A stretch of 64,000 nucleotides of DNA, from contig JAEUWP010000605.1 in NCBI GenBank assembly GCA_018524725.1, forward strand, positions 1 to 64,000, in the 5' to 3' direction. Positions 904 to 46,719 of this stretch are shown here, in pieces. This DNA comes from Podaxis mareebaensis (Eukaryota; Basidiomycota; Agaricomycetes; Agaricales; Agaricaceae). Made by a program: the position numbers and the translations under genes. Numbering within the stretch: the stretch's first letter is position 1; every line of letters starts with the position of its first letter. The notes beneath the pieces were generated by a model. That model made no database searches, was not told the origin of the DNA, and saw nothing but the letters and a program-made list of their open reading frames with translations.

Positions 904-961
904 TTTGATTGGGAATGGATCACCAATAAGCTTTGGGAACTCAAAGCCGAAAAAAACTGTC

Positions 962-3900: not shown

Positions 3901-4906
3901 CCGCGCTCGCGACCTCTCCTTCTCTTCCCCTGTCTCCCTCTCTGTAGCTACAGACGGCTCCATTCCCTCTAATCCCTCCCTATCCACCACTTCTGCTTTC
4001 CTAGTCTTTAATTCTTCTGACTTGGATATTCTTTCTTCTTCCGTTCACCCTTGCAGTGAGGTAACTTCTTCTGACTCCGAATCCTATGCACTCTGCCTCA
4101 GACTTTTCTCTTCTATATCCCATGCTCAATCTCTCAATGTCTCATCTATTGTAGTTTTCATGGACTCAATTTCCTCAGCTAAATGTTTATTTTCTTACAG
4201 GCCCCATAGCGCACATTCGGACTCCATCGCAATCGCTCCTCTCCTTCATTCCTGGCTCTCTTCCTCCCCTCTCAATCACATCCATTTCTGGTCCATCCCT
4301 TCATCCGCCAACTGGTCTATACATCACAAGGTGCACACTCTCACCAAATCCCTCTGACTCCCCAACCTGCATAACCAGCCCTTCCACACATCACTCGGAT
4401 TCGTTCAAAATCACTACACCCAAAAGTGCCCCTCACTGTGGCATCAACTCATGAACGATCCCTCTCATCGCAGCCACTCATGGCTCTCCCTAGTCGATGG
4501 CATGGAAAACCCTCTTCGGCCCAAATACGCAAAAGGGGGCACCTGGCTCAACTCACCCCTTGGGAAGAACCCCAACTTATGTGCACGCTTCACGCGATGC
4601 ATCACCAATCACACACCCATTGGCACTTTCCGACAGTGCTTCTTCCCTGGGCGCCATATCACCTCTTGCCCCTGTGGCGAGCCGCTAGAAATGTGAGACC
4701 ACATACTCGACGCCTGCCCCCATTTCCAATATCCATATGGAGCCTGTGACAGCTTCCATTGGATCATCCAATTCCTAGACCAAAACCCTGTGGCATTTTC
4801 CTTTGCCAACCAGATTCAAGGACCTATCACTTGGGAAGAGTTCACCACCCACTGCCTCAACCACAGAGAGCGTATTGCAAGAAACGGAGTCCCAGATGTC
4901 CACTAA
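962..4906 (+). pseudogene. LINE ORF2: endonuclease, reverse transcriptase, RNase H (four in-frame stops)
   Basis: One frame runs from the stop-free start near 905 (first ATG at 962) to TAA at 4904-4906. It is cut by TGA at 2825, 3512, 4355 and 4694. The endonuclease domain comes first, with LCLQEPPF, TGGDFNSHSPEWDP and SDHHPLLTSL. The reverse transcriptase follows, with APGPDHLSW, FRPIVLLNTLSKLIEKM, motif A FDVAQFFPST and the catalytic FVDDGLII near 3038-3060. RNase H is seen in the ATDGS, ESYAL and FMDS acidic motifs around 3950-4170. A C-terminal knuckle CPCGEPLEM-stop-DHILDACP ends the protein. Every stop is TGA at a site where copy 2 or the family pattern suggests a CGN arginine codon. 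That fits C-to-T change at CpG. Copying chemistry residues are otherwise present. Confidence 0.88.
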
Positions 4907-5185
4907 AGGCCTTACCTATTTCTTTGTCTCGTAGCTAGCTCCCCACTTCTACCCCTCTTCTCATTCCTCCTATATTCTGCATTTTGTTTAAGTTAGCTCT
5001 TGCTTTCTTTTCATCTCATCTCTATGTACAGTAGTCTTTCCTACTCTCACTTCATCTTCTCTATCTTCCTTTTCCCTCTTTTCTTTTCTCTAGTTTCAGT
5101 ATTGGGACTGCTATCATGCACCCGTTTGTAGTAGCTAGTTCTATTGCAATAAACGTCGATTTAAAAAAAAAAAAAAAAAAAAAAA
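4907..5185 (+). other. LINE 3' UTR and poly(A) tail, copy 1
   Basis: This stretch after the ORF2 stop is pyrimidine rich and ends in a GCAATAAACGTCGATTT block and 23 A residues at 5163-5185. Copy 2 keeps a block running from TTTCAGTATTGGGACTGC through GTAGTAGCTAG to GCAATAAA, which makes it the likely 3' recognition region for the reverse transcriptase. The flank right after the tail is CCAAAGAGTATGG. Confidence 0.8.
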
Positions 5186-7299
5186 CCAAAGAGTATGGTC
5201 ATTTTGACTAACAATTTCCCTGAAGTCAGATTGGCAGTATGCCAAAGACAGATCCTTGGTGACTTGCCAGCAACTGCACATTGGTTGCTTGGGACTGATG
5301 AGTTTGGGTGATGTTCCATTACCTCATCTCATTGGGTGGTGCTGACAATGTTAATCTCTTGTAGGCTATCATGAGTGTATCAATTGTATGGGTTCTCTGG
5401 GAGATTGACCTCAGGCAAATGTCCTGTCTTCATACCTACCCTAGTCATGCAGGACAAATCAGTATATGAGTGGACCAGGGCAGGGTATACAGCTGGGTAA
5501 GTTGAATTGATATGGTTATAGTTATTAGACACATTTTTCCTATATCTAACTAATAAGCTGCTGAATTTAGTTCTTTGATGCAATTTCTCTCTACACAGAA
5601 TGTCAAATCTGATGATTTCATCCCATCCATCCTGCCTGCCATTAGACAGGTTTTTTTACCTTGATGTGGAATTCAGGTATTCTCTCCACTTGCTTTGTGA
5701 AGTTGTCTCAGTAAGTCAGCTCAGGAATATTTTGGTGTTTAGCTAACAACACTCTGGAAGTGGGATTGGCACTCAAGGTCAAAATCCTTGACATTGATGT
5801 GATGGCTAGCTTGTAACAGTTAATTAACCAGTTAAAAATGTAACACAATTTTCAGTAGCATGGCTGATTCCTGCCACAACAGGGACCAAATTTGAGACTC
5901 ACTTTGAATCCTTAGTGATGGTTGATGGCAGCACTGAACTCATTGTCAATGAAATGAGGAAAGTGGGGGATGAAAAGTAGGCAATCACCTTATCACCTGA
6001 ATAATGCATGCTTATGTTGAATCAGAGTTCCTTGAGCCTGGCATACCACTGAAAATCTGTAACATCTCAACACATGGGCTTATCCCCCTGTCCCTTTGGC
6101 CCCTTGATTAGTCATGTCACACTTTGATTACCTTGGAAATGAATGTTGGGTGTATTTAACAAGAAAACATTGAGTAATTCCCACAACCATGATTCATATC
6201 ATAATAATTTGGTAGTCTGAGCCTTGACATATAGAGATGAATCTCAATGAGCTGTTTACAAATGCTGAATGAACCTTGTGGACAGTGCATACTACATGGA
6301 TAGCCAGTATCAACCTGAGCAGGATGAAGGCCAAAGGCTCTTGAGTGTCAAGTGGTGCCATGCTATCATGGTTCAAAGTGTGCCAACATATTTTGCTGTC
6401 TCCATGGTTGAGCACTGAACTGGGACAATCATTTACAACATCCAACCTACACCTCTAGGTCTGTCAATCTTGTACAATGATCACCCTGGGTAATTACTCC
6501 ACTTCATCACCTTAGGTAAAACTGAATTAGTCTATTCCACTCCTAAGCTCATGTGTCATTTGCTAGGCCCAGCCTTGGAGAGCTTGTTGTCCCCTGCAAT
6601 AATTAGGGTATTACAGAAAGTTCCTAGCCTTTCTGGTGAGTACAGTTGCTTTCCTGTATGGTGAAACTCAGTCAGGGTTCATATCAGAGTACAGTAAAGT
6701 TCTACATGCCCTTGATGCACCACTCCATTATTTCTGTTAGCCCCAATACATCATGTGTCAGGACTGGAGTGTACACCCAAAGTGAAGGAAGGGGTAATTC
6801 ACTATAAGTGGGGTCACAAGTGACATCAGATGAGTTATTGAAAGATGGAATTCCCTCCCCCATATGTGTGTCCCCAACAGAAGACTTATAAAACACCCTG
6901 GCATACCATCCAGTCTTCAGTTCTTTGTCACTAGTTGTCATATGAGTCATTGATTGATAACTTTGTGCATAATTCATAGATATATTACTGGTTGGTTACT
7001 GATTACTGGTCAAACTCCACATTGGCAAGAGGTTTGGTACATATCAGGCTTAGTGTCAAGAGGTTGTTTCTACAGTTGCCAAGACTCTTCCAGGACAGCA
7101 CTACTTTGGAGTGGGATGTTGCAATTCATGTTACTTACAATTACCCTCTGCAAAATATAGCTGGCATTTCTATTATTCACCCATCCCTTCACATAGTAAC
7201 ACTTCAGATGCAGGATATAGCTCCTGCAATTATCTTTGGGGAAGATGGAGGAATGTGATCCAGTATATTTGTGTTCACTAATGACATGTAATCCATATA

Positions 7300-7930
7300 T
7301 TCAACTGCCCTACTTGTCCTATTCCATGTCACTAGACTTTATCATCAGCAACATAAGAACATGCACACAGACTAGACTCCCTTGTCAGCTAATGCTTGCT
7401 CACTACCAGATGTTCTCATTGACAGTTGTTTTCCCACAGAGAACACTGATCCATATTGTCAGCCACCTTGTTTCCCTATCCTGTCTCCTGCCATTAGACT
7501 TTATAGTCAGTGATGTCAGAATGTGCACACAGGCTAGACTCCCTTGTCAGCCAATGCTTGCTCACTGCCAGATGTTCTTGTTGATGGTTGTTTTCCCACA
7601 GAGAATGCTAATCTGTATTGTCAGCTGCCCTGCTTCCCTGTCCTGTCTCCTGCTGTTAGACTTTATCATCAGTAATGTCAGAGTATATATACAGACCAGA
7701 CTTCCCTGTTGGCAAGTGGTTTCTCATTGCTAGATGTTCTCATCAATAGTTGTTTTCCCACAGAGACACTAATTTATGTTGCCAGCCACCCTGCTTTCCT
7801 GTCCTGTCCCATATCACTAGACTTTATCATTGGTGACACCAGAGTGTATATACAGACCAGACTTCCCTGTTGGCCAGGCTTGTTCAGTGCCAGACATTCT
7901 CACTGGCAGTTTTTTTTCCATAGAGAATGC
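7300..7930. repeat. Tandem repeat, about 162 bp x 4
   Basis: Four diverged units share the landmark TAGACTTTAT at 7333, 7495, 7657 and 7818, giving spacings of 162, 162 and 161 bp. Each unit also holds CAGACTAGACTCCCT-like, GTTGTTTTCCCACAGAGA and CTGTCCTGTCTCC-like blocks. Since 162 is a multiple of three, the first three units read as an open frame, which ends when the 161-bp step changes phase. This looks like a minisatellite inside transposon debris and not a gene. Confidence 0.85.
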
Positions 7931-10900
7931 AGAATCCACTTGAGGTACTTCCCAATACTGAACTCCATATACAGGATGATTGGTGTATCCAGTTCTTGTT
8001 GTCCTTGACATTGCATTGAAGACTGGTTACAGTACCTTGTCACCCATATACTCATATCCTCAGGTAAATATAATTGAAATACCACCTGTTGACAGGGCAG
8101 CCACAAGTACATTGTCTCCAACAACAGGTACATAGAACCCTGCTGACTCAACCAGATTGTCTTGATCCAAGTGGTAACTCTACATATCAGTAATGTATGT
8201 GTCCATTCATCCTCAGAGAGTATGGATTTTAAATGAGGTGCTGGTGCAATGACTATATATTTTGCAACTTGCTTGATCTCCCCTTATGGAGGTATGTACC
8301 ACTGCCTTGGTGAAGACTCCATCATTTCCAGTGATCATGCTTCTATTTGAAAGGTGTGAGGAGCAGACACTTGCTGGCCATGCACAATAGTCTCATAGTA
8401 TTTCCTTTGTACCTCTCAGAGGCACAACCAGTTTATTCTTCAATCAATCATATATTCAGCCCATTTAACTATCCCCTTTGCAACCCTGACAACCATCCCC
8501 TTTGCAACTCCAACAACATAACCCTCATACTACCATCAACAATAGCCCCAGCCTCAACCACTGCATTCATGATCTTTTATTCTCTCATTATGCCCTCATC
8601 CCTTCATTGTCTCATTATATTTGCTTTACCAGGGATACTGTTATCTTTCTCCTTTCAACTGCAGACACAATTAAATACACACAGAATACAAAAACTGTAT
8701 TTGTACTTAGTGGCCTTTCAATGAATCAGTATAATCATCTGGCTAATATGACTGCTGCCTTCTCCTCTACTCACCAGATACATTGCAGCTCCACAATTTG
8801 ATGGTCAACAGGAAGAGAGCAGCCCAGCACTTCCTATACTCCCAGTCAGATCTTATGAAGATTTCATTGATTGTATAGCCATGAGTAGATGCACTGCCTT
8901 CTGCAAGTCAACTTAGAAGAGTATCACAGCATACATGCATGATTCTGTCTTCAGAGAATGCAAGCTGAAGTCAGATGAACCCCAGTGACCATATGGTACT
9001 GGCACCACCATTGCCTGACTACATGGCTACAGGAACATCTCTTGCTTGATTTCAAGACCTCCTTGAAGTGATTACAGCCTATAAACAGATCTTATTCAGT
9101 TATACTAGGTTTATCTATTGTGGAAGGACCTACTACAATGGAGGCTCTCCATCATTCAGTGTGTTGGTAATGGCTGATTTGGGTGGTCTGACTGCAGCAT
9201 GTAGGGCAAAGGTCAATGGGATAGTGCAGTAGAATAGAGAAAGATGAATTCAAATCTGAATGTGATTGGGGAAATCATTGCTATGGCTGCCTTCATTGTC
9301 AGAGAAGCAACCCTCACCATGGAACTGAACAGTAATCTTACAGGAGTGTCAATCAAAGATGATCTCTTGGAGATACCATCATCAAGGTTGAAGAAAAGTG
9401 CAGATGATGGAGGGCCTCAGGTATTAGGTAGGTATGTGAATTCCTTAGTCCACAGGGTGATCCCTACAACCAACATATTTACTCAGTGTCCCACCCTCAA
9501 CTGTAGCACTTAGAGCATCATCAATGAATGGTATCAATGTAGTGAACATGTCCCTATAGTAGTTTGTAGTAGTCCTTGTCCCTTGTTAGTATCAAGGTCT
9601 TCTAAGAAGTTGTTGAGCCACAGGCCAATGGTGAGGATGTGAGCAGGCTGGGAATCTTCAAGTAAATGCCTAATGCTTGTTTTATTTTATATACCTATTA
9701 TCAAGAACATACCACCCAGAGAAGATAACATAAAAAGAGGGAAGAATTCAAGGTGCTGTACAATCTAAGAGCTACCCAGCTGTGCAATTGAAGCACAACT
9801 TTACAGGCCATATATTTGCATAAGAGAGCTCAACATAGTGCCTTGTAGAATGGTGAATAGAGGGGGATCCACAGACTCAATGCAGGAGAATCTATGACTA
9901 CTATGAGTTTATCCATAACATGATCAAATCAACTGGACTCTGCAATGTCCTCACCAGACTTGACATCAGGGAGGTTGTCTGTTTCTCCTCAGACTTGCTG
10001 TCTGTGAGCTCTGCAGGTAGACAGAAAGTGGAGGTTCATTGTGCTGATGACTTGCATGGCCTTGATGACACTGTTTTCACATAGTACCTTCTGGTGCAAA
10101 ATATAATGACAAGAATAAGCTGGTTTCCCATGCATGAGTTGCCCAACATGTTCAAAGCCTCATTCTATGCTGACTGCAGTCTCACTGTCTTCCATGAGCA
10201 CTTTTTCCATGATCTGAGGTGCAAGTATATTACTGGGGTGCCTAACATTGAGCTTGGACATTTTACTCATACCTAGTGTTTGCTGTTGGACCTTCCCCAC
10301 CTGTAGTATCTCTTCCACCTTTGCTCCTGACACCTGTTGCTTTCAATGTCACTGAAACATTCAGCTTCCCTGGTGACATGAGATACATCAAGAAGCATTA
10401 TTGGGTTGGAGGAGAGTTGCCTCATCAGTGAGATCAGACTACCTTGATGAGGCTCTTGGGGCCATGGTGTCAGTGCTAATATGCATAAAGTGAGTGACCA
10501 GTGACTGTCAATTATCTTGTATTGGCAGATAGCAGGGGTCTCATGAAATGTCAAAAGGAGCATGGTGAAGATAAGTGGCTGGTTGTGTACATACACTGTG
10601 CCCATAGTTACAAATCACTGACACTTTCTGAATTTTGTTTGAGCATCCATTCAGCTAATACTCATGCATGTTGAACATTTGGATCAATATATCAGGGTGA
10701 GGCTCCCAAGCATAGAAGTTATTGAGCACAAAGTGAGTATTACATACTTGGTCATTGGCCCTGAGCTACTCAAACTGGTGAAAGGCATATTTGTGAATAT
10801 CTGCAATGAATGCAGTGGACCTACAGCATGATTCCCTGATCTTGAGCAAGGATCAAGTCAGCTCCAGTGTAGTGACACCAGATAGGCAGATTTATGACAG

Positions 10901-11554
10901 AGTGGAACTCTAGGAAGATGAGTGGCCCAAGTCCAAGGAGCAAGGAAAAGAGAATGAGAGCTGTTGAGATATCATCAGCCATTAGTGAATGCATCTAAGA
11001 ACACTTACCACAAAGATATATGTGCATGTATATGCCCTCACTGAACTCCTGACAACCCAATCTAAATAAAACATACTTTGCAGTCACTTCTTTGCAATTA
11101 TAACTCACAGGTAGTGGGAATGTGTTGTTGACAAAGTCAGGCAAGTATCATTGATCAGGCATATGGCTATCAAGCTAGGTGCTCAATATCAACTTGCAAT
11201 GGATGGAGATTTCATTGTCAACACTGATGCTAACTCACTCACAAAATGTAGCCACAGAGTTACCTATCTGTGCTTGTCAAGCAGATTTGTCAACCAGGCA
11301 GTGGTGTCTACAGCCATATAATCAGGTGTCACTGACAATTACTGAATGGTGCATCATTCTCATGAGGTGACTAGTCCATGCAACTGACAACCATCATCAA
11401 CAAGGGAGGAGTTACCACACTGAGGCATTCAAATGTACATAGTTTACTTTGAGCTATTCACATCTGAGTTGAGACAATGAAATCTAACAAAATCTATGTT
11501 TGATATTATTTGTCCCAGGACTCAAACATGCATGTTTACACCAACATAGACCTT

Positions 11555-11858
11555 GATCCTTTCCATATCACTAGATATTGTGTGCCAGTGAATACTCTGT
11601 GGACTGGCCAGAGTTTCTGCTTGGCCTCAGCTGGCATGGCACTTATCACCAGACTTCAACATCAGTGAGCATGCTTTCCTCCATCAATGAATAGATGGAA
11701 TGCTTTGATCCCTCCCATATCACTAGACATTGTGTATCAGTGAGTAAGACTGAAGTGGACTGGCTAGAGCTTCTGCTCAGCCTCAATGGGCTCAGCACTT
11801 ACAACCAGACTTCAACATCAGTGAGTGTGCTTTTCCACTATCAATGAACAGACAGAAT
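11555..11858. repeat. Tandem duplication, about 152 bp x 2
   Basis: Two units share CATATCACTAGA, GTGGACTGGC, the CCAGACTTCAACATCAGTGA block and ATCAATGAA in the same order. The landmark CATATCACTAG starts at 11564 and 11716, a spacing of 152 bp. Differences between the units are mostly transitions. Confidence 0.75.
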
Positions 11859-14472
11859 ATAGGTCTCTTATGTAACTGCAGGTATTGCAGGTATGTCAGA
11901 CTTCATTTCTGGCTCTTACACTGTCTGAGGGTATTTATAATCAGATTCTGCCCTCCCAAAGTTGCATTTGGAGAAGATATCCATCCAACAAAACCTCCAT
12001 ACCCATGTTCACCCAGAGAAAATGTGTACTCCACTCTCAATCAACTCATTCAATCATATCATCCAACTTTACCCACATAATATCCTGATGAATACAACAA
12101 ATGACCCCCACTAAAGGTCTGTAAACATGCATGGAACACCATTTCTGGTCTTGTAATGCCCTCATTCCTCATCTGATTAACATGGTGTCTGAACCACTTC
12201 TTTTGTAGAGCTGTGCAATGCAGAACACTCTCCTGGGTTCTAAAAACCACCACAGTGAGTGGTGTTACTCTAGGGGAAACAATTAATTAACTGTCCCAAA
12301 TGTCACAGCCATTCCCACCTTGAGGTCATATATCTTTGGAGAACTCCTACCCTCATGGACCCTGTAGTTGGTCTTTGAAGAACCCCTGCCATCATGGACC
12401 TTGTAGACCCTCTTCATGAGCAATCTTCTCTGCTCTGGAGGGATATATATGTGAACTACAAGTTAATTTTTTCTTATTCCTTTCACCGTGGAGAAGAATG
12501 CATTCACTGAAGTCACCTCATTCAAAAACAGCTGTCTGATGATTGATTTAGAGGGTGAGATTGTGTGTATCCTGTGCAAAATTTTGCATGTGAGATAATC
12601 CACTCATGGCTGTTGTTACCATTGTCACTAACAAATCCCACTTAGAGCAATGGCTTCACTGCAGAGGCCAAAACTACAGATAGCATGCCCTTCTACATCA
12701 TTCTCAAGTGGATTGATGGTTGGGAGCCATACTCAGAGGTATATCAACACCAATTCAGCATAGATTCTCCAATAATTGTGTAGTTATATGAATTGCCCAG
12801 TGAGTTCATGGTTATTACTGGTAAAGTTTTTGGGCTGGAAGTTGGACTCATGATGTATGATGTCAAGACACTTGGTGAGGATAATCTATGTGAGGGCTCT
12901 ATTCTCTGTAAAGGCTGAGTTACTTACATAATGATTAGCAATGTCTGCACTGAACAATGTTATTGAGTTCTTGAATGAGCATCAGCCTGAGACTCTGCAT
13001 TCACTGAGTCCAATGGAAAACTCAGAGGAGGGCCTGAGCTCCCCTGAACTCTGATGGTGGAACATGTATACTCTTCTTTCCTACCTTTTGTCCTGTACCA
13101 GCATGAGTTTGAATAATCAAACTTCTTGGCCTTTGTACTGGATAGTGTTGAGATCTGATGATTGTGGTTAATGAATATGCCATGCAAATCTCCTTGGAAA
13201 CCATGGTGTACAGGCATGCCATGTTCTGATATTGACTCTTCCACTGTCAAATGACCCTCAGACCATTCACCCACTTTGAGTGCACCAATCCAGTGTTTCC
13301 AGGTCTTGCAAGGCCTATTGTTCTCATACATTTGTCATAGGGGAGGTATATTCACTATGATCTTCTGTCCTGGAGACATGGAATTTCCATACCATGAGTG
13401 TAATTGACCTCTGCAAATGGGCACTGATGTTACAACATGTCTAGCCATTCAAACACCTTCCTCAAAGGTGATTCTAGAATATCATGTCCCACATGCCTTC
13501 TGTGCTGTTGTTGTCAATGATCTTCTATCATCTGGGAGGCTATATATACAACAATGCATGAGATGTGAGGCAACACATTTCTTGCTCCTCTTGCTATGAC
13601 TATCACTTCAATCACTGAGATGTTCAATATCTGCATTTTTGCCAACCACAAGATGATGACAGAATTGGAGAATCATATTGTGCATATGCCATGCACAGTT
13701 GTGAAGGTAAGATCTCAGCTATGTTTTCAAGAGTACTACTGATTCAGGTGCCTAGAGTGATGGCCACATTGCAACAGTCAAGACAATGGACAATATAACA
13801 GTGTACACATTTCTCAGCTGGAGAGACAAAGGAGTGGCACCTGGCACAGTATGTTCATCAACATTATTTTTAATATAAATAGCTGATGTGATTTTTGTAG
13901 CCATATAGTTTACCTAGTGACTGTGTTATCACCATGGGTAGTGTGTTGGGTGCAGGAAGGGAGATGCTGCTGTATGACATCACAGCATTGGAGGATAGAG
14001 ACCCATGTGAGTAGCATAAACATCCTTGATGACTAAAGGGATTGATAAGGAATGTAGCTATGGCACAACTGAATGAGATGGTGTGCTTTCTTAAGAGACA
14101 TTGTCAAGTGACAGACTGCAGCTTGCACTTTTGGAAAAGTCCACTAAGGGGAGCACTTGAGTGATATTGGGTTTACTGGCAGCTTTCAGTGATAGATATT
14201 TTGCTATGTACTATTTCATAACCAAGGAGTGAATGGCTTTGAGATAGACTCCATGAAAGAACTGGGCCATGGGAATACAATGGGATGCAATGGGCATTAT
14301 AAGTTGGTTATAGGGTGGCATTAGGAGTGCAGCTTAGATTGGAAGGCTCATGAGAAAAATATCTATGACTTAAAGTGACTTAGTTTGATTTTTAAGTGAT
14401 GTTAAGGTAAAACTGTGTAAGTTATCTTAAGTTGGAACAAAGTTTGAAAAAGTGTTAGAATTGTGTTAGATG

Positions 14473-15145
14473 GGTTAGGGGGCAGTGTGCAATAAAAGAC
14501 AACAATGAGTACAGTGACTACTGGCACAACAGTGTTGAGGAAAAAAACCTTGACAACTGCCTGTTTTGTCTTATATAGACTCATCAGGCACTCTACATAG
14601 CCTGTTATCTGCTTAGATGGCTACTGGGGTTAGGGGACAGTGCAATAAAAAGACAACAATGAGTACTGAGACTACTGGCACAACAGTATCAAGGGGAAAC
14701 CTTGATGACTGCCTGTTTCATCTTATATAGACTCATCAGGTGCTCTACATAGCTTGTTATCTGCTTAGATAGCCACTGATCACCACTGTCCAATTGGACA
14801 ATGTTCACAATATGAATTGTGCATGGCTAGTCTATCTGACTTTCACCATTGACTGGGATGAGTGATATATGCTATTGATCATAGAGGTTAGGGGGCAGTG
14901 CAATAAAAAGACAACAATGAGTACTGAGACTACTGGCACAATGATGTCAAGGAGAAAACCTTGACAACTGCCTGTTTCATTTTATATAGACTCATCAGGT
15001 GCTCTACATAGCTCATTATCCACTTAGATGGCCACTGATTGCATCCATGTTATTGGATGATGTACATGATATGAATCATGCATAGCTAGTCTATCTGACT
15101 TTTGCCACTGACCAGGATGAGTGTTATATGCTATCAATCATTCTG
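14473..15145. repeat. Three-copy dispersed/tandem repeat unit
   Basis: Three units start with GGTTAGGG at about 14473, 14638 and 14886. Each continues with CAATAAAA(A)GACAACAATGAGTAC, then CTACTGGCACAA, CCTTGA(C/T)(A/G)ACTGCCTGTTT and TATATAGACTCATCAGG. The first unit is shorter (about 165 bp); the other two are about 250 bp and end with GGATGAGTG(A/T)TATATGCTAT. A weaker relative with GGTTAGGGG and TATAGACTCATCAG lies at 15477-15600. Confidence 0.75.
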
Positions 15146-16800
15146 TGGAATGCATTACTTGATGTACATGAGGTTCTACAAAATGCTAAGTTATTCAAAT
15201 ATTTTAAGTGTACACTTACCACCAGTGCTCCACATTTTACAAAGTGCCTGCTGAGTGCCCATCCACAGGGTGCCTACTGACTGACACGTGGGTAGACACT
15301 ATCAGGAGGTGCTGGCATGGGAAAAAGATTCATTAGACTAAGATGAATATCTCTTGAGCAAATATAGGGATTGACTCACTTGGGATATGTGTGGTGGGCC
15401 ACCTATAACCAATTGAAACCTAGCTAATCCCATTGTGTAAGGAGTCACAATGTTTAATAGACTACTGGGGTTAGGAGGTTAGGGGTTTATTAGCAGTGAG
15501 AGTGCTCTCTGATGAACTGCAGGTATAATTCATTGGAATTTCTACCTGTGAATTTCATCTACTTTATAGACTCATCAGACACATTTGCAGTTGTTAACCT
15601 TGTTCTGCTGTGTTCCATCAATAGCAATGGAACATCTGATATTAATTTACCTATCATGTAGGTCTATACCTATGAGGCACAGCACAATACCTACTACCTT
15701 TCAAAACAGATAATGATTGCCTGATTTAGGTGATAGAATTGATCCAGGGTTGATTGATGACATTGTCAATTGGACTGGCTAAAAATAACTGACATAAGAA
15801 ATTCTTACTGGATAATTCATGCCATCATCTGGGCATGTGATGCTACCCATGTAATCAGGTCACATGACCTAGGTGACACTTAGAAAATGACTTACAATTT
15901 GGGATGTGGTCTAAAAATAACAGAGCTATTTCCAGACTCCATGACTCAAAAGCACCAGTTAGGTGCAGTCCCATTAGGGATTTGGGTTTAGAGGTCTGGA
16001 AAAACATATGTTACAAAGGTTAGTATGTCCATCCCTATCCAGGCTAGGAAATGTACTTACTGCTTCCAAAAGGAGTGGAACAATCTCCTACTACCAATTT
16101 GGCTGGCAGGGAGAGTCACAAGTAGATACTACTAGAGACCTATTGGAATACACAGTCAGACTTCAATTGAACTTCCATTGAGAAGGAAAAGCTCCCAAGC
16201 CAGCACCCCAATGCTGACAAGGAGGTTTGTATCCCTTACTAGCCAGTCCATTGTACTTGAATCCCAATTGCTGCATGGGCTCTCACCCAGGGGCCACAAG
16301 TACAGCCAAATATAGCAAGCCATTCCACTTGTACTTGCTCCCAGCTGGACAACTCAAATGCAGACCTGTACTAGAAGTTTTCTATGCTTCCCAACTGTGG
16401 ACTTATGGACATCTGTGAGACCTCAACCTATACCTGGTTCATGTATACTGATTCCTGCTTTGGTACTAGGGTATGCCAAGAGCCTGGCATATGATAAATC
16501 TGTTGGTCTACCTGCCTTCTGCTGGAGGTATTGGGATGCTTTCTGTCAGAAAGGTGTTAGGGGATCCACACCCCCAAGTCTGACTTGGATTCCTACCTGT
16601 CATTAGTGGAGACATGATCTGCCTCAGGTGACAGATCAGCCTGCCTCCCCCTGCAGGTTGATTGAAATGTCCTACTTGACCAGTGAGCTTAGGGGGCTCA
16701 GATCTGGTTGCTAGGCTATTACTTTTCCAACCAATTAAGGCCAAACCATCTAGGTTAGCCTATGATGTTCCAGTTTGGAGACTTCCATAGGCAGAGGCTC

Positions 16801-16814
16801 ATAGGTGTTAGTCC
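16801..16814. repeat. Target-site duplication, left copy, of LINE copy 2
   Basis: ATAGGTGTTAGTCC lies directly left of the first base that matches LINE copy 1. The same 14 bases recur after the A-rich tail at 20989-21002. Perfect direct repeats of this length are the mark of target-primed reverse transcription. Confidence 0.9.
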
Positions 16815-19800
16815 TTTTTCTTCTATTCCCATTCTTTTCTTTAACATCCATCAATCTTCTTCCCTTGTTGAACTTCTATTAAGCAAACCTTTATTTAAGG
16901 ATATCCTCATTCTCTGCATTCAGGAACCTCCTTTTGGCATCATCTGTAACATCCCTTCTACCAAGAACTCTAAAGGAGTTCCATATAAAGGAACACTATA
17001 CAATCCCAATTGGTGCATCTTTTTACCTGATGAAAACCACCCCCACATGGCAACCTTCATCCACCATTCCTGTGACTCTCTTATGCCCATTTCTCATCTG
17101 GACATCATCACTTCTCCTGACTTTCAACTCATCTCTCTCTCCTTTCTGAAGAAGATCTACTTCCTCAACTGCTACTTTGAACCATCTGACAACTCATCTC
17201 TGACTTACTTTGAATCTCATGTTCACCTCCTTCCAAAAAGCTTGGTATGCACTGGAGGTGACTTCAACTCCCACTTGCCTGAATGGGACCCTCTGTTGTC
17301 CATCACTCCACTAGAAGTGACCTTCTGACTGACATCATGAGCACCTTAGGTCTTACACTCTCAACCCCATCTGAGGCTAAGTACACTCATATCCCATATG
17401 ACACTAATAAACACCCATCTGTCATTGACCTTGTCTTCATGATAGATGAACCCTCTCAAAGCCCAGTCCATCAAATTCGTGATGACTGGCAATACACTTT
17501 AGACCATCACCCTCTCCTCACCTCTCTCCCCATCCCCTCTCCTTTCCAACCCTTTATCAAGAAACCCACCATCCTGCAGGATTCTGAAGAAGAAGCTGCA
17601 TTCCTATACTCCATCAGCATCTGACTCCAAGCCATCCCTACCCACTTTGACTCAAGTGACAACATCCATACCTATGCTGACACTATGCCCCACATCATTG
17701 AACAAGAATGGCAAAGAAATGCCAAACTTGTCAAGATCTGCACTAGGTCCAAACCATGGTGGAATCCCAGTTGTTCTATTGCTCTGAAAGCTTTCCAATC
17801 CCACAAATCCAAAGCCAATTGGACCAAATTCCAATGCACCACCTGTCAAGCTAAGCACACTTTCTTTGACAAGAAAATCAAGGACATAGCTGAAGAAGAT
17901 TGTTGTCCATGGGATCTCATGTCTTGGGTCAGCAAACATAACCTCCCCCCCTCCCAATCCATCACTTTCAACAGGAAGAGTTGCAATGAGCTAGATGACC
18001 TCTGGCATGCTCTCAACTCTTCTTACAATTCCACCTCTACCCAGCCTGTTGACTTAAGCACTATTGAGTCCTTTGACACCCACCCAGAACACCCATGGCT
18101 CCCTTTCTCTAATGCCAAACTCTTTGACACTCTCAACCCATGTGCTAATTCCTCTGCTCCTGGACCTGATCATCTCTCCTGGGCACATATCAAGCACCTA
18201 ATGTCTAACAACATCCTATGCAACAATTTCCTCACCTTTGCATCCAAGTGCATTGAGCTCTCTACATGACCACAACATTTCAAGAATTCCACCTCTATCA
18301 TCATCCCTAAACCCAATAAACCTCATTACTCCACACTAAAAATGTTCTGGCCAATAGTCCTGCTCAACACTTTGGGCAAACTCATTGAAAAGATGATCTC
18401 CACCAGGATGCAATTTGAGGCATCCCAGTACAATCTCATCCACCCCCTCCAATTCAGAGGCATTATCCAGTGCTCAACTGAAGATGCCAGTGTCTACATC
18501 ACCCACCTTGTCTGCTCCAGATGGAAATAAAAACTCAAGACCAGCATCATTGCCTTTGATGTCACTCAATTCTTCCCATCTACCAACCATTCCACCCTCA
18601 CCAACACCCTTCATTGTCAAGGTTTCAATTCTCACCTTGTCTCTTTTTTCTCCAGTTACCTTAAAGATTGCTTCACCACTTATTCCTGGAACAATAAACT
18701 TTCCCCCAAATTTCTGGCTTCTGTTGGCATTGGCCAAGGGTCTGCTTTATCACCCATTCTTACTGCCCTTTCTCTCTCCCCTTTTATGTATAAACTCTCC
18801 AATGATCCCTGTTGTAAGATAGTATCCTTTGTCAATGACAGACTTATTCTTGTACAGTCTGATTCCTTTGTAACTAACTGTTATCTTCTTTTGCAGGTTT
18901 ACAAGAACTGCAAAGACTACCTCTACCACCTTGGCTTTGTCCTCAAAAGAGACAAAACTGAGGCCTTCCACTTTTCCAACCAACCCTCTCATGATCCAAA
19001 CCCTCCTATCATCATTGACAACTCCCTCACTATCTGCCCAAAACCTTATCTATGATACCTCAGCTTCTGGTTTGACAGGAGCCTCACTTTCAAGGAACAT
19101 GTCTGGTTCTACTCTACCAAGGTGTTATCCATGGTCCGCTACATGTACATGTTAGGCAACTCCATCCGAGGCCTCTCTCCCTTCCATAAGAGACTGCTGT
19201 ACAGATCTTGCATCATCCCTATCACTATCTATGGCTTTCACTTGTGGTTCAACCAAAATGCCAAATATTGCAGTCTCATCAAGTCACTTCAACACATGCA
19301 GAGACAAGCTGCCCTCTGGATCACTGGTGTGTTCCACACCACTCCCTCAGGAGGAGTTGAGGCTATTGCTGGCCTTATCCCCATCCAACTACATCTATTC
19401 AAACTTGCAAAGCAGTGCTCCCTCTGCTTCCACACCCTCCCCCCCTCCCACCCTCTCAAACTTCTCATCTGTGACATTGACCCCTTAGACATGCACCAAA
19501 CCAAACTGTGCTCCACAGTGCTCAATTTTGTCTCAGATGCCCAACTGGTCACAGACTGGTTCCAGTGTCTCCACCCTAGCACCAAACCTGGCCAGCATCT
19601 TCTAGACTTGTTTAGTGACTGAATCAGATTCTTTGAGTGCCCTGATCCTTCAAAAGAAAGAGCTATGGCACTTCACATTGCCAATGCCTCCCATGCTCGA
19701 GATCTTTCATTCTCCTCCCCTATTTCTATTGTAGTTGCTACAGACAGCTCTGTTCCCACAGACCCCTCCATCTCTGCTACTTCTGCCTTTATTGTCTTTA

Positions 19801-20696
19801 ATTCTTCCAACTCAGACATTCTTTCTTCTTCTATTCACCCTTGCAGTGAGGTTACTTCTTCTGATTCTGAATCTTATGCTCTTCATCTCAGACTATTCTC
19901 TGCCATCTCTCATGCATCCTCTCTCAATAGCTCTTCAATTGTTATCTTTATGGATTCAATCTCTTTAGCTAAACTGCTATTTTCTTATAGGCCTCATAGC
20001 ACACACCCAGACTCCATAGCAGTCGCCCCTCTTCTACACTCCTGGCTCTCTTCCTCTCCTCTTAACCACATCCACTTCTGGTCAATACCTTTGTCTGCCA
20101 ACTGGTCTATCCACCACAAAGCACACACTCTCACCAAGTTGCTCCATCTCCCTAACCCATGTCATCAACCAATCCACACCTCCCTCAGATTTGTTTGCCA
20201 TTATTACACCAAAAAATGCCTTTTGCTTTGGCATCAACATATGAATGATCCTGAATACTGTGGCCACTCATGGCTCCATCTCTTAAACCCTGCTGAACAA
20301 CCCCTCTAACCCAAGTACACCAAGGGCAGCACTTGGCTCAACTCTCCCCTCAGGCATAATGCCCAATTATACACTCACTTCATGCATTGCATCACCAATC
20401 ATGCACCCATTGGCACCTTTCAACAGCACTTCTTCCCTGGGCACCACATCACCTCATGCCCCTGTGGAGAACCCTTAGAGATGTGAGACCATATCCTCAA
20501 TGAGTGCCCCTGCTTCCAATATCCAGTTGGAGCCTGTGACAGCTTTTATTGGATCATCCAATTCCTAGACTGGAACCCCTCAGCATTCTCCTTCACTGAC
20601 CAGATACAAGGACCCTTAACCCAAGAAGAGTTCACCACATGCTGCCTTAACTGCAGAGAGCAACTTATAAGAAATGGAGTCCCAGACATTCACTAA
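16815..20696 (+). pseudogene. Dead LINE ORF2 (copy 2)
   Basis: Read against copy 1, the endonuclease starts in frame, with TGGDFNSHLPEWDP near 17260-17290. A one-base deletion between about 17290 and 17315 then shifts the frame. After that the frame contains stops at 17622, 18267, 18528, 19053, 19620, 20307 and 20484 before the natural TAA at 20694-20696. The reverse transcriptase catalytic FVDDG of copy 1 reads FVNDR here (about 18828-18843), so the first catalytic aspartate is lost. RNase H motifs ATDSS, ESYAL and FMDS and the terminal CPCGEPLEM knuckle are still visible. The TGA at 20484 sits at exactly the same codon as the TGA at 4694 of copy 1. Confidence 0.9.
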
Positions 20697-20988
20697 AGGC
20701 CTCTCTCTTCCTTCCACTTGCCTTGTAGTTAGCTCCCCTGCTCCTACACCTCTTCATTTTCAGATTCCTTTTCTCCCTTTATTTGCATTTCAATAAGTTG
20801 TTCTCCACTCTCTTTTCATCTCACTTACCTCTAGTGTAGCACCATCACTTCTACCCTCTTCTGCTCTTCTCTCAAGTTTCTTCTTTTTTCTTTTCCTTTC
20901 TTGGTTTCAGTATTGGGACTGCTATTGTGCACCCTTTTGTAGTAGCTAGTCTATTGCAATAAATGTCAATTTAAAAATAAAAATAAAA
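16815..20988 (+). mobile_element. LINE copy 2, 5'-truncated and CpG-depleted
   Basis: Homology to copy 1 starts inside the N-terminal part of ORF2 (copy 1 about 1027) and runs to the 3' UTR and an A-rich tail of ATTTAAAAATAAAAATAAAA type. The element is flanked by a perfect 14-bp target-site duplication, so truncation came with insertion and not by later deletion. Only a handful of CG dinucleotides remain in 4.2 kb, while copy 1 has many at the same aligned sites, usually as TG or CA here. The copy is dead: one frameshift, seven in-frame stops and a changed reverse transcriptase active site. Confidence 0.93.
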
Positions 20989-21002
20989 ATAGGTGTTAGT
21001 CC
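20989..21002. repeat. Target-site duplication, right copy, of LINE copy 2
   Basis: ATAGGTGTTAGTCC directly follows the A-rich tail and is identical to 16801-16814. Confidence 0.9.
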
Positions 21003-21640
21003 ACTTACCTTCCATCCCTGGATCAAGAATTGTCTCATTGGTCAGCTCAAGAACATGCTTCTTCCAAGTAGAAGCTAAATCCAACAATTGTCTAGTTCAT
21101 TTTTTACTCACCAGGACTTGTCAGCTAAAGACATCTGACTTATCTAATCTGATGTACTGCCCCACCACACCCAATCTGAACTGGACATGTGGACACCTTT
21201 CAGCACACCACCCCCCAGAAGGAGCCAGGAACTTGGGAGAGGTGGCACTAGACTAGTTTCAGGCCATTGGAAGACCTTAGGGAATTCCATGTCCATTTGG
21301 CTGTAGGTGTGTAGTGCCTGCAACCACCCATGTCTGATATGTTCTCCTAGTAGTTGCACATTCATGTAATCCCATGCCAGATTAAATTCTGATTTTAAGA
21401 CTAAGACAGGGGGTTGTATGACCTTCTCCTCACAGATTCTGTCATCCCACTGCTTTTGGTAGTCTTCGGACTTGTTAGGGATTTAGTCAGCTTGCAGAAC
21501 AATTGGCAGGGCTGTATTTTGCTGCCAGTTATAGTGGTGGTGATACTGTGCATGTTGATAATATGACTGGTGATGTTGGTGAGGTGTTGGGAGGAACCTG
21601 CTCCCAGGCATACCAAGGCAAGACTGGCCTACTCATTTTT
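21003..21640. other. End of the CpG-depleted region, no gene seen
   Basis: This 640-bp stretch continues the CpG-poor composition (one CG near 21467) up to about 21640. Normal CpG density then resumes within a few bases. I see no coding signal in it. Confidence 0.6.
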
Positions 21641-21713
21641 CGATGTACTGTTCCTTTTGCACCCTGAGAAAACCTTCAGGATTCATTCGATGCTGCAAGT
21701 CCTCCTACTAGGT

Positions 21714-22056
21714 TTATAAGGGTTCCATATCGGCCCGTTCGATTTTGACTTCTGGTTCGATTTCGAGTGTTGGTAGCTCGAGGTGGAGTGGTGAAGCTAT
21801 AATCGCCGCTGGTGCTAGTGCTACCGTCAACGCCCAATACGATGCGAATCTTGATTCTGGCTCCTCTAGTCCCCGTATTACATACTCCAGTATCGATTCG
21901 AGCCCTAGTCGTGGTTCCAGCCCTGGAGCGACCATATACACCCCAACCGACTCTCCATCCTCATCACCGCTGGAATGAATAGCAAAACTCGGCAATGGGA
22001 GGAGGTTTACTTTGTATTCGGGTGTATCTGGGTCTGGTGTGAAGACAAGTGTGGAC
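21714..22056 (-). pseudogene. Possible coding remnant, unknown
   Basis: On the minus strand a frame is open from about 22092 (after a TGA) to TAA at 21714-21716. It starts near residues AVLAFNSPIRSTLVF and is acidic, with EDGESVGVYMV and LEIEPEVKIERA. There is no clear ATG or donor/acceptor pair, and an overlapping plus-strand frame (21745-21978, Ser rich) is equally open. It may be the 3' exon of a gene whose front was lost at the edge of the repeat region, or chance. The remaining stretch to 22279 shows nothing I can name. Confidence 0.2.
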
Positions 22057-22279
22057 CTGATAGGAGAGTTGAATGCGAGTACGGCTCAAGCCATCTCTGG
22101 TTGTCGTGCGCCCAGTGTCCCTGGCTTTGACACCCGGGGGTGTGTGGGGGTGCGTTGGGGAAGGGTGGGCGTAGGTAACGGGAGGTGGTGTCTAATTTCA
22201 GGCAGAGGCATATGCAAGACTCAGCGATTTTTACAGTACACTCTTATGTATCTATCACACTAGTTCAATCATGCAATTG

Positions 22280-24508
22280 TCAGAGACGGCCTGCCTCTCG
22301 TAAAGTTCTCCGCTCCTCGGTGAGATTCTTAATCTCTTTGAGATCGATGGCTTTGAACATCCAGTTGAACCACAAGCCACCACTACGTCCGCTTGCGAGG
22401 TGCATATCTTCGAGTAACTCGTCTATTGCCTGTGGCCATCTACACGGGGATCATCAGCTTGTCGAATGGGATTGTATTTAATGCAAAGAGAGTCACTGAC
22501 GACCATAGATGTAACGCAGCACAGAGACTCTCGTTTAGAAGTCCCAGCATCCCAGGGAACCGCTTTTGACACCATGCACTATGTCGCTCCGCTTCTTGGG
22601 ATGCAGCTTCTGGTGTAGGTGGCAGCTTGAGTTTGTCACCAAGGAAATAAGACGAGATCCAATGAGCGGCTACTTCAAACACATGCCCATTATTTCCTGC
22701 GACCTTTGCACTCCCACATGTCAGCCCAATGCATGGATGGATGAAAGTGATAAGATGGAACGTACAATTGCACCGTTGATGGCAAAGTCCTTCCGGTCGA
22801 TGTTTTTGGCTGGTACGATGCCGCGATAGATTGAAGATGCCATGATTGGCTTAGTGACCTGATCTTCGTGCTGGGTTGGTGGATTTTGGAGGGTATAATA
22901 TGACGCCCATTCGTCGTTGATGAGTGCTGCAGGTGGGAGGACATGTCTGCGGATTCCCAGTTCTTCAGCAGTTTGATCTGTTATTGTTTTTGTCAAGAGG
23001 TCCTCAGTAGAAGTGTGGAGGAGTTACCGTTGAAGAGGTTTTCCCAGGAGGATCGATAACCCATAGCCAGGATCACAACGTCTGCGGGGACCCTTTGTCC
23101 ATCGTTGAGGATAATGGAATGGCCGTCTCCGCCATAGCCTACCGCACGCGCAGGAGTGTAAAGGTTGATTTGGCCATTGGTCGCGAGAGCGTAGAATGAC
23201 GTAGGACGCGCGACGCCGTCGTCGTTTATCCGAGCATCCCAGAAGAGGGACCCGACGTTTCGTAGAGGAGAGTCTTTCGGCAGATTGTAGGCATGAAACT
23301 GAGAAGAACATTAATCAGATATTTTCTTTGAACGAGGTGAGGTTTACGCCGTCTTCGCTAATCTTTCTGAATATGTATTGGATGAGCTTTGATCCAAACC
23401 ACGTCGTGTGGAGAAACCGTCTATGACATCAATCGAGACCGGGACCTTTATGGAGTGGGTTGGATCTTACTCAAGGCGTGAACGGAGGGTGCTGTACGGA
23501 GAAAGCGTAGAAGCAACTCTGTTAGAATTCGGTCAGTATACAAGGCGCGTTCATTTTTCGTGGGGTCGTGTTTACCTGCTTTTACGCAGGGTTGCAGAAG
23601 GCGGGCGTCGCGTTGCGAAGTACGGTTCGAGGTGCTCAAACACGACAGCGACTTTCCTTCCCTGGTTAGTGAGGTATGCTGAAATACTGCAGAGCTATTA
23701 GGCACCTGCGAGGCGTGAGAAGATCATACGACGTACTCTTGAGCAGATTTGCCGCAGCCGATAATGACGATGTTTCCTGCCTCTACGCTTGATCCCTCCT
23801 GGATCGGCTTGACAGCTGCAAGGATGTTCGGCAGTTCCTGATTAAACCGACTCGAGTGGAGCACAAGACCCCGGAACATAGAAGCTTTAGCCGCGTGAGG
23901 AGAAAGGTACGAGGGGATGTTAGGGTTGCTGCAGCCCTGATTAGCATGCAAGGTCAATCAGTTACCCATGTGGAGAGAGAAATATGAATATTTGGGCACT
24001 GGACACTTACACCTGTACAGAGAACTACCTTGGTAAAGTGGAGGTCTGAAGTCACATTCGTGGTCAAGTCTTCAACCTTGACAACCCAGCCATTGTTGTT
24101 CTCCCCGCGTTTTATGTTGAGAACTTCTGCATTGTATAGAAATCGGCCTTGGAGAAACTTGGTAGCGAAGGACTCCATGTATTCGGACACCACGTCTCCT
24201 GTTAGGCGTCCACCGGTTTTTGCAGCATTGGGTGGGATATCCATCTCCATCGGCGAAAAATGTAGTTCCCCGTGTATACTAGAGTGTGCTCAGTTACCCG
24301 AAATCATTGAATAATAACATAGAGACGACGCGCACTTGTTGAGGGTTAGTCCAGGATACACCCGCTCCTTCGCCCAGACTCCGCCCGCACTATTGTCGCG
24401 GGTAATTAACCGCAAGTCGGTGAAGCCGTCTTTGATCAGAGTATAGGCAGTGATGAGGGCAGCAGGCCCTGAGCCGATGATTCCAATATTTTGCTGATTA
24501 AGGGCCAT
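22280..24508 (-). CDS. Flavin-containing monooxygenase-like protein A
   Basis: Ten exons on the minus strand join to 1719 nt (572 aa): 24508-24336, 24278-24011, 23936-23737, 23686-23576, 23518-23471, 23420-23348, 23298-23028, 22977-22766, 22703-22501 and 22439-22280. Introns are 49-74 nt with GT-AG ends and phases that close. The FAD site IIGSGPAALITA is at residues 10-21, the FMO fingerprint FRGLVLHSSRF at 168-178, the NADPH site IIGCGKSA at 205-212 and a late LAMGY motif follows. Such enzymes use NADPH, O2 and FAD to oxygenate nucleophilic or ketone substrates (FMO/Baeyer-Villiger group). The substrate cannot be read from the sequence. A near twin lies 3350 bp upstream. The start ATG at 24508 sits 83 bp after a TATATA box. 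Confidence 0.93.
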
Positions 24509-24590
24509 ATCTTCGTCGTACGCCTAGCGGAGGAGAGGAGTCACCAAGGTCAAGATAGCTACCAAATCGTGAACGCCCGGGCGGTGCCAA

Positions 24591-24596
24591 TATATA
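24591..24596 (-). promoter_or_regulatory. TATA box of monooxygenase gene A
   Basis: TATATA (both strands) lies 83 bp upstream of the ATG at 24508, within a TATATAGCTGTTAAATG block (plus strand) that the paralogue keeps with changes at the same distance. Conservation between the two promoters supports it. Confidence 0.55.
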
Positions 24597-25621
24597 GCTG
24601 TTAAATGGGGTGGAACGCTGGACGTACTTATGGGGTTGATGTCCATGCCATAGCGGCCCTTGATGTCGAAGAATCATCAATACCTCAAGACTGGTACAGC
24701 ACATAGATCTGGACACGTAAAGCGCAGTCCATCATACAGGCTCCTAACAAGCCCATTTGTCAATACGCAAAGAGACTAGCATCAACCACTGTTGAGCTTG
24801 AACCCCATACAAACTAGATAGATTCACGGGTCGTTGGTCCCCTGCCTGGAGTAGGAAGTTCAACGAGGGGCATTCAAACAAAGCCCGATGATCTTTATGT
24901 AAGGACTGAACGAACACAAGAGTTCGGGTGCGGCAGCGTGACGAGTCACAGGCATAACGGTGACGATGAAACCTACTGCTAAGACGCGGTGAGCGTATAC
25001 TAGAGCTACACCCTGCCACACCCCCTCAGCAGGATGATATCCATGTAAGTATGCTATTGCCCCGAAGTGATGTGTGGAGGATTCCGGTTGATGCTATGTT
25101 TATGCGATGTACACGAGTGTATATAGATGACGAAATATTACGGTAGTGTAACATATTCATGGGAGCACAGAATCATAAATAAATAAACAAGGGAAAAGAA
25201 GAACAGGAAATAGGATGTGGGAGATGAATGACTCTTTGGTCAATCCTCGTCCTCGTCTTCCTGAGGGTCCTCTTCTTGGGAGTTGTCGAGTCGGTGTGCC
25301 GTTGACGGCGGGGTGATTGTGTCCCTTTTCTAGACTTGTTGAAGGCACCTGACTTCTCCAGGAATTCGGCAAGCGCAATTATCAGGTTCTTCATTCAGGA
25401 AGTGACGCCGGTGGTTCTCCTTATGCACGTTGTGAGGGACTCGGGATAGTAGCCTATGTCAATCTCTCTGAGTGCGTTGGATGACGGGTAGTGGGAACAT
25501 ATTTCTGTGGAACGTATACGGTGTAAGCGGTTCCTGGTCTGAGGCCGACATTCGTGCATGCGGGAAACAATCTTAAAATACATTTTATCTACATACATAG
25601 CATACGGACTTGGTGTCATAG
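24597..25621. other. Intergenic: promoter A and 3' flank of gene B
   Basis: The part up to about 24950 aligns in patches with the promoter of gene B (28000-28260), so the duplicated unit includes about 450 bp of upstream DNA. From about 25020 to 25620 the sequence has no counterpart beside the other copy. Minus-strand frames at 25173-25619 are open in pieces (for example a Lys/Arg-rich stretch near 25250-25340), but no consistent gene model closes. Confidence 0.45.
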
Positions 25622-27858: not shown

Positions 27859-27940
27859 GTCTTCGTCGTACACCTAGCGGAGGAGAGGAGTTATCAAGTT
27901 CGGGATAGTTATCAAACCGTAAATACTTGAGAAGCGGCAT

Positions 27941-27946
27941 TATATA
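27941..27946 (-). promoter_or_regulatory. TATA box of monooxygenase gene B
   Basis: TATATA lies 83 bp upstream of the ATG at 27858, the same distance as in gene A, inside a matching TATATAGCTGTT(A/G)AATG block. Confidence 0.55.
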
Positions 27947-39848: not shown

Positions 39849-42937
<3,089 letters not shown>

Positions 42938-46580: not shown

Positions 46581-46719
46581 GGTAGTAGTGGTCGGGAGAA
46601 AAGGACGGAAGAGGCCGACGACGGACATCAACAAATATTCACATTTTCACATGGCTCTAAAATACATTCCATTAGTCCTACAGAGAAAACAATCGTATGT
46701 ACAGTAACAAAATCGCATT

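What the first reader, a model, noticed from the sequence alone, without database searches (positions are those of the whole stretch)
5186..21640. A 16-kb CpG desert with sharp edges
The sequence shows almost no CG dinucleotides from the end of LINE copy 1 to about 21640, and many TG and CA. Density is normal on both sides. The right edge is abrupt, about 640 bp before the first monooxygenase gene. Cytosine methylation followed by deamination at CpG is known to age transposons in basidiomycetes; a RIP-like process acting on CpG is an alternative. The inference is that this block has been kept methylated for a long time and that silencing stops sharply near 21640.
Basis: partly seen in the sequence, partly recalled or inferred. 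Interest (0 to 1): 0.75.

Follow-up and report, generated by a model that had tools for sequence, protein, structure and literature searches.

The report
CpG-erased silent block in mushroom
A 16-kb stretch of a mushroom chromosome has lost almost every CG pair because its cytosines were turned into thymines far faster than other bases changed, probably while the stretch was chemically silenced; this looks like an extreme example of a known fungal process.

Summary
The desert is real. Window 5186-21640 holds 8 CpGs where 739 are expected; 5186-11344 holds none. The CpGs were converted in place. A CpG-rich relative of part of the block has 165 CpGs there; the block keeps 0, and 151 read TG or CA. 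On the block's own branch 51 of 51 CpGs shared by two relatives were lost while 33 of 1429 other sites changed, so CpG decayed at least about 120 times faster. Thirty LINE copies give a median near 98. Mammalian methylated CpG is about 10-15 (recalled).

The right edge is sharp: support interval 21605-21641. The left side is not normal: LINE copy 1 has CpG o/e 0.46; that edge is the end of a younger insertion into an older desert.

The block includes 6.2 kb with no other copy found in the assembly, so repeat-triggered RIP alone explains it poorly. Best reading: steady, methylation-coupled CpG decay of a silent domain in an Agaricaceae mushroom. CpG decay of basidiomycete repeats is known; completeness, rate and copy-number independence are the notable parts. 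Methylation was not measured.

The parts
1..5179 (+). LINE copy 1, begins at the contig start, poly-A tail at its 3' end; CpG o/e 0.46; younger insertion that forms the left edge of the desert
   Evidence: Pfam endonuclease and reverse transcriptase; CpG profile; 3 in-frame stops in the aligned ORF2 frame
5180..11344 (.). Desert part with no other copy found in the assembly: 0 CpG, 1145 TpG+CpA
   Evidence: (only the self-match; the search skips very common words)
11345..14261 (.). Desert part with two CpG-richer relatives: C417:4569-7448 (83%) and pieces in C241:33994-36540 (88-91%)
   Evidence: 0 of 165 CpGs of the C417 relative kept; 0 of 51 CpGs shared by both relatives kept
14462..15925 (.). 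Desert part related to a dispersed repeat family often found at contig ends; tandem units 14545-15141
16802..16814 (+). Target-site duplication of LINE copy 2, 5' side (13 of 13 bases identical to 20990-21002)
16819..20989 (+). LINE copy 2, 5'-truncated, 75.6% identical to copy 1; 5 CpG left, each at a site where 11-17 of 29 other copies have CpG
20990..21640 (.). Rightmost desert part, no other copy found in the assembly, begins with the 3' target-site duplication; 1 CpG
21605..21641 (.). Right edge of the desert (2-logL support interval of the change point)
21641..64000 (.). Gene-bearing DNA with normal CpG (o/e 0.91): flavoprotein-like exons (weak), AAA ATPase, ETF domain, F-box protein

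Best explanation
The block is an old, heterochromatic, TE-bearing domain whose CpGs were kept methylated by the genome's DNMT1/DNMT5-type enzymes and turned into TpG/CpA by a steady process running roughly 100 times faster than other substitution. It acted on the whole domain, repeats and single-copy DNA alike, and not on genes to the right of about 21640. LINEs keep landing in such domains: copy 2 came first and is nearly erased, copy 1 came later and is half erased, so CpG content works as a clock of insertion order. Shown: in-place CpG to TpG/CpA conversion where relatives exist, its relative rate, equal erasure of the part without other copies, LINEs more CpG-rich than the DNA they entered, presence of methyltransferase genes. 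Inferred: that the CpGs were methylated, that the domain is heterochromatin, and that the decay is steady 5mC deamination (perhaps poorly repaired, or fast only relative to a low background mutation rate) rather than bursts.
For: CpG counts and Poisson test. Comparison with relatives: 0 of 165 and 0 of 114 CpGs kept (overlapping sets). Three-way branch test: 51 of 51 shared CpGs lost against 33 of 1429 non-CpG changes; 2.5% lower bound on the relative rate 120. LINE copies: median relative rate 98, IQR 63-127, n=30; log CpG loss rises with 2nd-codon-position change, slope 83 +- 16, intercept 0.13 +- 0.22. TG/CA doublets between the 259-bp tandem units, 12 against 1 for the pooled control doublets. 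LINE bodies are CpG-richer than their 3' flanks in 25 of 28. One DNMT5-like, two DNMT1-like and one DNMT2-like gene. TET/JBP matches. In the family relative Agaricus bisporus CpG methylation nearly matches the annotated repeats and has a clear border at large repeat clusters (PMC7473861, passages).
Against: No methylation data. The relative rate is about ten times the mammalian value (recalled), which plain passive deamination does not obviously give. C>T in CpA context is raised on the desert branch (15 of 211 against 6 of 370), which a purely CpG process does not predict; LINE copies do not show it. Without the LINE copy 2 point the regression weakens (slope 61 +- 21, intercept 0.37 +- 0.26), leaving room for an early burst. 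LINE 2nd-position rates rest on few changes per copy, and some LINE CpG loss may predate insertion. L013 and L017, the closest pair, keep 0.65 and 0.58 of CpGs, a slower rate (61 and 56) than the block's bound. In the single-copy part the tandem-unit test is weak: over six overlapping pairs of 162-bp units, 33 TG/CA doublets against 22 for the pooled control doublets. Several relatives of the 14462-15925 repeat are partly depleted themselves (o/e 0.44-0.61 in L050, L052, L053).
Confidence: 0.65

Rival explanations
1. A RIP-like hypermutation triggered by repeated DNA in the sexual cycle, acting on CpG, wiped the block in a few bursts and leaked into neighbouring single-copy DNA.
For: A relative CpG rate of about 100 or more exceeds ordinary deamination. 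CpG-biased hypermutation is reported for Rhizoctonia solani AG8 (PMC4014442, passages), Tricholoma matsutake (PMC6980582, passages) and repeats of three other basidiomycetes, very weakly in two of them (PMC4352252, passages). The raised CpA to TpA on the desert branch is RIP-like. Leakage of RIP into single-copy DNA next to repeats is known (stated in PMC4014442).
Against: The 6.2 kb without other copies is the most completely erased part, CpG at 0 of 1145 CpG/TpG/CpA sites. No strand runs in 49 converted sites, 27 runs against 25.5 expected. TCG is lost less, not more (208 of 489 against 362 of 704). LINE CpG content is spread over o/e 0.03-0.84. No RID-type enzyme was recognised, but enzyme classes were judged only by nearest solved structure.
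Confidence: 0.2
2. The right edge is a rearrangement junction: an old desert was joined to gene-rich DNA at about 21640, so the sharp step says nothing about where silencing stops. (About the edge only; compatible with the best explanation for the block.)
For: The step is resolved to about 36 bp, sharper than a chromatin boundary need be. The sequence across the edge has no other copy in the assembly, so the join could not be checked against a relative.
Against: The window has no N and no inverted repeat of 40 or more bases in 1-22500. CpG is slightly low for 1.36 kb outside the edge, 65 of 271 against 2305 of 7870 (p=0.066), a weak hint of occasional spread. A clear methylation border at repeat clusters is reported for A. 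bisporus.
Confidence: 0.3
3. The block never had CpGs: it is foreign, organellar or contaminant DNA, or an assembly chimera.
For: Over 5186-11344 no relative was found in the assembly. No reads were available to test continuity.
Against: Aligned relatives in the same genome show CpG at sites that read TG/CA here. LINE copy 2 lies between matching 13-bp target-site duplications. Other LINE insertion sites have equally low CpG (16 of 28 flanks at o/e 0.10 or less).
Confidence: 0.02

Closest known systems
CpG-biased C-to-T decay of repeats in basidiomycetes with Masc2/DNMT1-type enzymes (PMC4352252; T. matsutake PMC6980582; R. solani AG8 PMC4014442)
   Same: C to T at CpG, DNMT1-type enzymes present, repeats affected
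   Different: Here loss is nearly total (o/e about 0.01), covers DNA without other copies in the same block, and the relative rate was measured on a branch
CpG-methylated large repeat clusters (putative centromeres) of Agaricus bisporus (PMC7473861)
   Same: Same family of fungi, repeat-bearing block, clear border to flanks
   Different: Methylation not measured here; extent of the block to the left unknown because the contig begins in LINE copy 1; that paper argued from AT content against RIP, and the passages seen give no CpG counts
Repeat-induced point mutation (RIP) of Ascomycota
   Same: C to T transitions in repeated DNA
   Different: CpG, not CpA, in the LINEs; DNA without other copies fully affected
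Dim2-dependent mitotic mutator of Zymoseptoria tritici (PMC8016269)
   Same: C to T mutation tied to a DNA methyltransferase and confined largely to methylated repeats
   Different: CpA there, CpG here; here the link to a methyltransferase is inferred

Membership tests
Methylation-coupled CpG decay of basidiomycete repeats | CpG to TpG/CpA conversion relative to less affected copies | tested here: met
   0 of 165 and 0 of 51 kept
Methylation-coupled CpG decay of basidiomycete repeats | DNMT1 (Masc2-like) and/or DNMT5 gene in the genome | tested here: met
   C147 matches chain 7r76_A at 4.7e-124 (that this chain is the Cryptococcus DNMT5 is recalled); C109 and C384 match DNMT1 chains
Methylation-coupled CpG decay of basidiomycete repeats | Dense CpG methylation of the block or its young relatives | not testable with these tools
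   no methylation data
RIP | Restricted to repeated DNA (apart from leakage) | tested here: not met
   5186-11344 and 20990-21640 have no other copy in the assembly yet hold 0 and 1 CpG; draft assembly, and leakage or vanished repeats cannot be excluded
RIP | CpA preference | tested here: inconclusive
   LINEs, codon positions 1-2: CA 45/3684, CC 59/5622, CT 159/5289 (CT probably inflated by leucine codons); desert branch: CA 15/211, CC 3/179, CT 3/191
RIP | RID/Masc1-type enzyme | tested here: inconclusive
   Five PF00145 matches at four places, none assigned to RID, but judged only by nearest solved structure, piece by piece
Microbotryum-type TpCpG hypermutation | Preferential loss of TCG | tested here: not met
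   TCG lost 208/489 against 362/704 for other 5' bases, p=0.003 in the opposite direction
Agaricaceae centromeric repeat cluster | One large (110-280 kb) methylated repeat cluster per chromosome | not testable with these tools
   contig begins inside LINE copy 1; no methylation or chromosome map

The most novel reading that the evidence does not exclude
Mushrooms of this group have an active, methyltransferase-coupled CpG mutator that erases whole heterochromatin domains at about 100 times the background rate regardless of copy number: neither RIP (homology-triggered, mostly CpA) nor ordinary 5mC deamination, with CpG content recording the order of insertions in silent DNA.
Probability: 0.2. 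Interest if true: 0.8.

Novelty: new member of a known kind. Interest (0 to 1): 0.5.

Why it matters
It gives a relative decay rate for CpG in apparently silenced mushroom DNA, shows that DNA without other copies in such a block is erased like the repeats, and suggests CpG content as a dating tool for nested insertions. It makes the disputed question of RIP in mushroom-forming fungi testable: a rate near 100 without dependence on copy number would point to the silenced state, not repetition, as the trigger.

Tried and rejected
Search for a mutagenic deaminase family (PF14441; the idea is recalled): no match, but nothing rang in the controls either, so it says nothing. Search for uracil/thymine-DNA glycosylase (PF03167): no match although 13 of 14 prokaryote controls rang; introns may hide the gene, so no conclusion on repair. 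Rfam and tRNA scans of the window: nothing. Pfam on 10 ORFs of the desert: no family at its cut-off, two weak sub-threshold matches. Telomeric idea for the repeat at 14462-15925: the 15 fetched stretches hold at most three exact TTAGGG or CCCTAA each on a strand, and the assembly has no exact fourfold TTAGGG, so left unproven. Strand-coordinated deamination: no sign, runs z = 0.44. TpCpG signature: not met. For the methyltransferase loci L034 and L036 I first used the wrong strand and got nothing, then the right one.

Random sampling of the genome for a CpG baseline could not be done. The baseline rests on the window's right part and on fetched loci.

Rows dropped or limited: of 30 LINE copies, L027 and L030 were left out of the flank count because their match does not reach the 3' end, and the L031 flank was cut at 650 bp. 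The 30 copies were the scored ones of 413 first-look candidates, so biased to likeness with copy 1. Flanks of L009, L011 and L023 contain other LINE sequence; those of L013 and L015 match each other at 77% and resemble LINEs weakly; L006/L024, L010/L020, L012/L025/L028/L029 and L018/L032 flanks share repeats. The pairwise LINE alignment takes in about 200 columns upstream of the true match, so I rest instead (columns with CpG in at least half of the other copies: copy 2 keeps 3 of 33, copy 1 keeps 13 of 32). The three-way test had 1826 aligned columns; sites where the two reference copies differ were not scored. The LINE rates use values rounded by hand, so its range (29-237) differs slightly from that printed (28-224).

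Full report
What is there. The window is the first 64 kb of a 98-kb contig in a 36.95-Mb, 429-contig genome. An F-box protein predicted from 51317-53089 is 81% identical to a Macrolepiota fuliginosa protein, 74% to one of Leucoagaricus sp. and 61% to one of Agaricus bisporus, so the organism is most likely an Agaricaceae mushroom. CpG o/e is 0.46 in 1-5185, 0.00 in 5186-12000, 0.01 in 12001-17000, 0.03 in 17001-21560 and 0.91 in 21561-64000. The block 5186-21640 holds 8 CpGs against 739 expected.

Edges. A change-point fit on CpG among CpG+TpG+CpA sites places the right edge between 21634 and 21641, support 21605-21641, log-likelihood gain 469. The left edge is the poly-A end of LINE copy 1. 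Copy 1 is itself depleted and is a later insertion, so the older desert probably continued beyond its insertion point; the contig starts inside copy 1, so the true left end is unknown.

The CpGs were converted in place. Relatives of 11345-14261 lie in contigs C417 and C241 with o/e 0.98 and 0.79 over the three-way columns, against 0.013 in the block. Of 165 CpGs in the C417 copy the block keeps none: 79 TG, 72 CA, 6 TA, 8 other. Of 114 in the C241 copy it keeps none (the two sets overlap). The one CpG the block has there faces CA in both relatives, so it looks new. In the three-way comparison 51 CpGs are shared by both relatives; the block has 24 TG, 25 CA, 1 TA, 1 AG. On the block's own branch 33 of 1429 non-CpG sites changed. 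The part without other copies cannot be compared in this way. Its TpG+CpA excess (396) exceeds its missing CpGs (271); its 162-bp tandem units give only a weak sign, 33 TG/CA doublets against 22 pooled control doublets over six overlapping pairs, whereas the 259-bp pair in the repeat part gives 12 against 1.

Rate. Zero of 51 kept at 2.3% other change implies a relative CpG rate above 120 (2.5% bound; median of the estimate 235). With a mammal-like relative rate of 12 (recalled) one expects 76% kept; the chance of 0 of 51 is about 4e-32. A second design used 30 LINE copies. Their differences sit mostly at third codon positions, as under past selection, so second-position change roughly bounds time since insertion. 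Second-position change is 0.5-3.3% while 3-67% of CpGs are kept; the relative rate has median 98, IQR 63-127, range 29-237. Caveats: few changes per copy, some CpG loss may predate insertion, and the 30 are those scored out of 413 candidates.

Order of events. LINE copy 2 (16819-20989) is flanked by identical 13-bp target-site duplications. It has 5 CpGs, each at a site where 11-17 of 29 other copies have CpG, so they look like survivors. CpG makes up 3 of 2257 CpG/TpG/CpA sites in the rest of the block, 5 of 702 in LINE copy 2 (p=0.02) and 112 of 914 in LINE copy 1. In the sample of LINE loci, bodies are CpG-richer than their 3' flanks in 25 of 28, 16 of 28 flanks have o/e 0.10 or less, and none of the 28 reaches 0.70; some of these flanks are themselves repeats. 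LINEs of this sample therefore entered DNA that was already depleted, or survive only there.

Mechanism. Methyltransferase genes are present: one DNMT5-like (C147), two DNMT1-like (C109, C384), one DNMT2-like (C150), plus 7 TET/JBP matches, four with stops inside. Against repeat-triggered RIP: 5186-11344 and 20990-21700 match only themselves in the assembly (the search skips very common words, but it did find relatives at 83% for the neighbouring part), yet the former is the most completely erased part. Conversions are not strand-clustered (27 runs, 25.5 expected), TCG is not favoured, and LINE CpG loss rises with age from an intercept not different from zero, as a clock would, though this weakens without LINE copy 2. 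Against a purely CpG process: C>T in CpA is raised on the desert branch (15 of 211 against 6 of 370, p=0.001), with 17 G>A against 4 C>T among all its non-CpG changes; LINEs do not repeat the CpA effect. I settle on steady, methylation-coupled decay of a silent domain at about 65% and leave a RIP-like burst at 20%.

Comparison with print. Passages of PMC4352252 link CpG signatures in repeats of three basidiomycetes (strong in one) to Masc2-like enzymes. Passages of PMC6980582 report CpG hypermutation and two masc2 copies in T. matsutake and cite Horns 2012 for absence of RIP in Agaricomycotina (Horns not read). Passages of PMC4014442 report CpG hypermutation in R. solani AG8, in genes and repeats alike. 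Passages of PMC7473861 report CpG methylation almost confined to repeats, with a clear border, in A. bisporus. Passages of PMC8016269 show a methyltransferase-dependent mitotic mutator at CpA. In the listings I saw no title or abstract start announcing a relative CpG rate or erased single-copy DNA in a mushroom, but those searches are narrow and only open-licence papers are held.

Verdict. It is a strong example of a known kind.

Noticed in passing
window 14462-15925; starts of C300, C228, C199, C128, C183, C295, C376, C417: A dispersed repeat with short TTAGGG/CCCTAA-like junctions matches at or near the ends of many contigs; may be subtelomeric or simply a repeat that breaks the assembly.
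   Followed up: partly
window 12253-14099: On the desert branch C>T in CpA context is about four times that in CpC/CpT, and non-CpG changes show 17 G>A against 4 C>T; the CpA effect is not seen in the LINE copies. Unexplained.
   Followed up: partly
LINE loci L004-L033: None of 28 LINE 3' flanks reaches CpG o/e 0.70; the sampled LINEs seem to insert into, or persist only in, depleted DNA.
   Followed up: yes
L026 and L033: LINE copies with o/e 0.74 and 0.52 sit in flanks with o/e 0.00-0.03 on both sides, with what look like matching target-site duplications.
   Followed up: no
window 7317-7927: 162-bp tandem repeat (a multiple of three) in the desert part without other copies, open in one frame over several units; origin unknown.
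   Followed up: no
window 22276-22400 and 25618-25742: Sequence just right of the edge recurs 3.3 kb further on (89% over 125 bp) and on C9 (82%); flavoprotein-like exons are duplicated there.
   Followed up: no
genome G000 (C93, C346, C162, C356, C100, C286, C90): Seven TET/JBP matches, four of them with stop codons inside the matched stretch (introns or decay).
   Followed up: no
window 21641-23000: CpG share slightly low just outside the right edge (65 of 271 against 2305 of 7870, p=0.066; 7 of 198 overlapping windows further right are as low).
   Followed up: partly
C241:33994-36434 (L040): The relative of the desert repeat is arranged as two pieces in opposite orientation.
   Followed up: no
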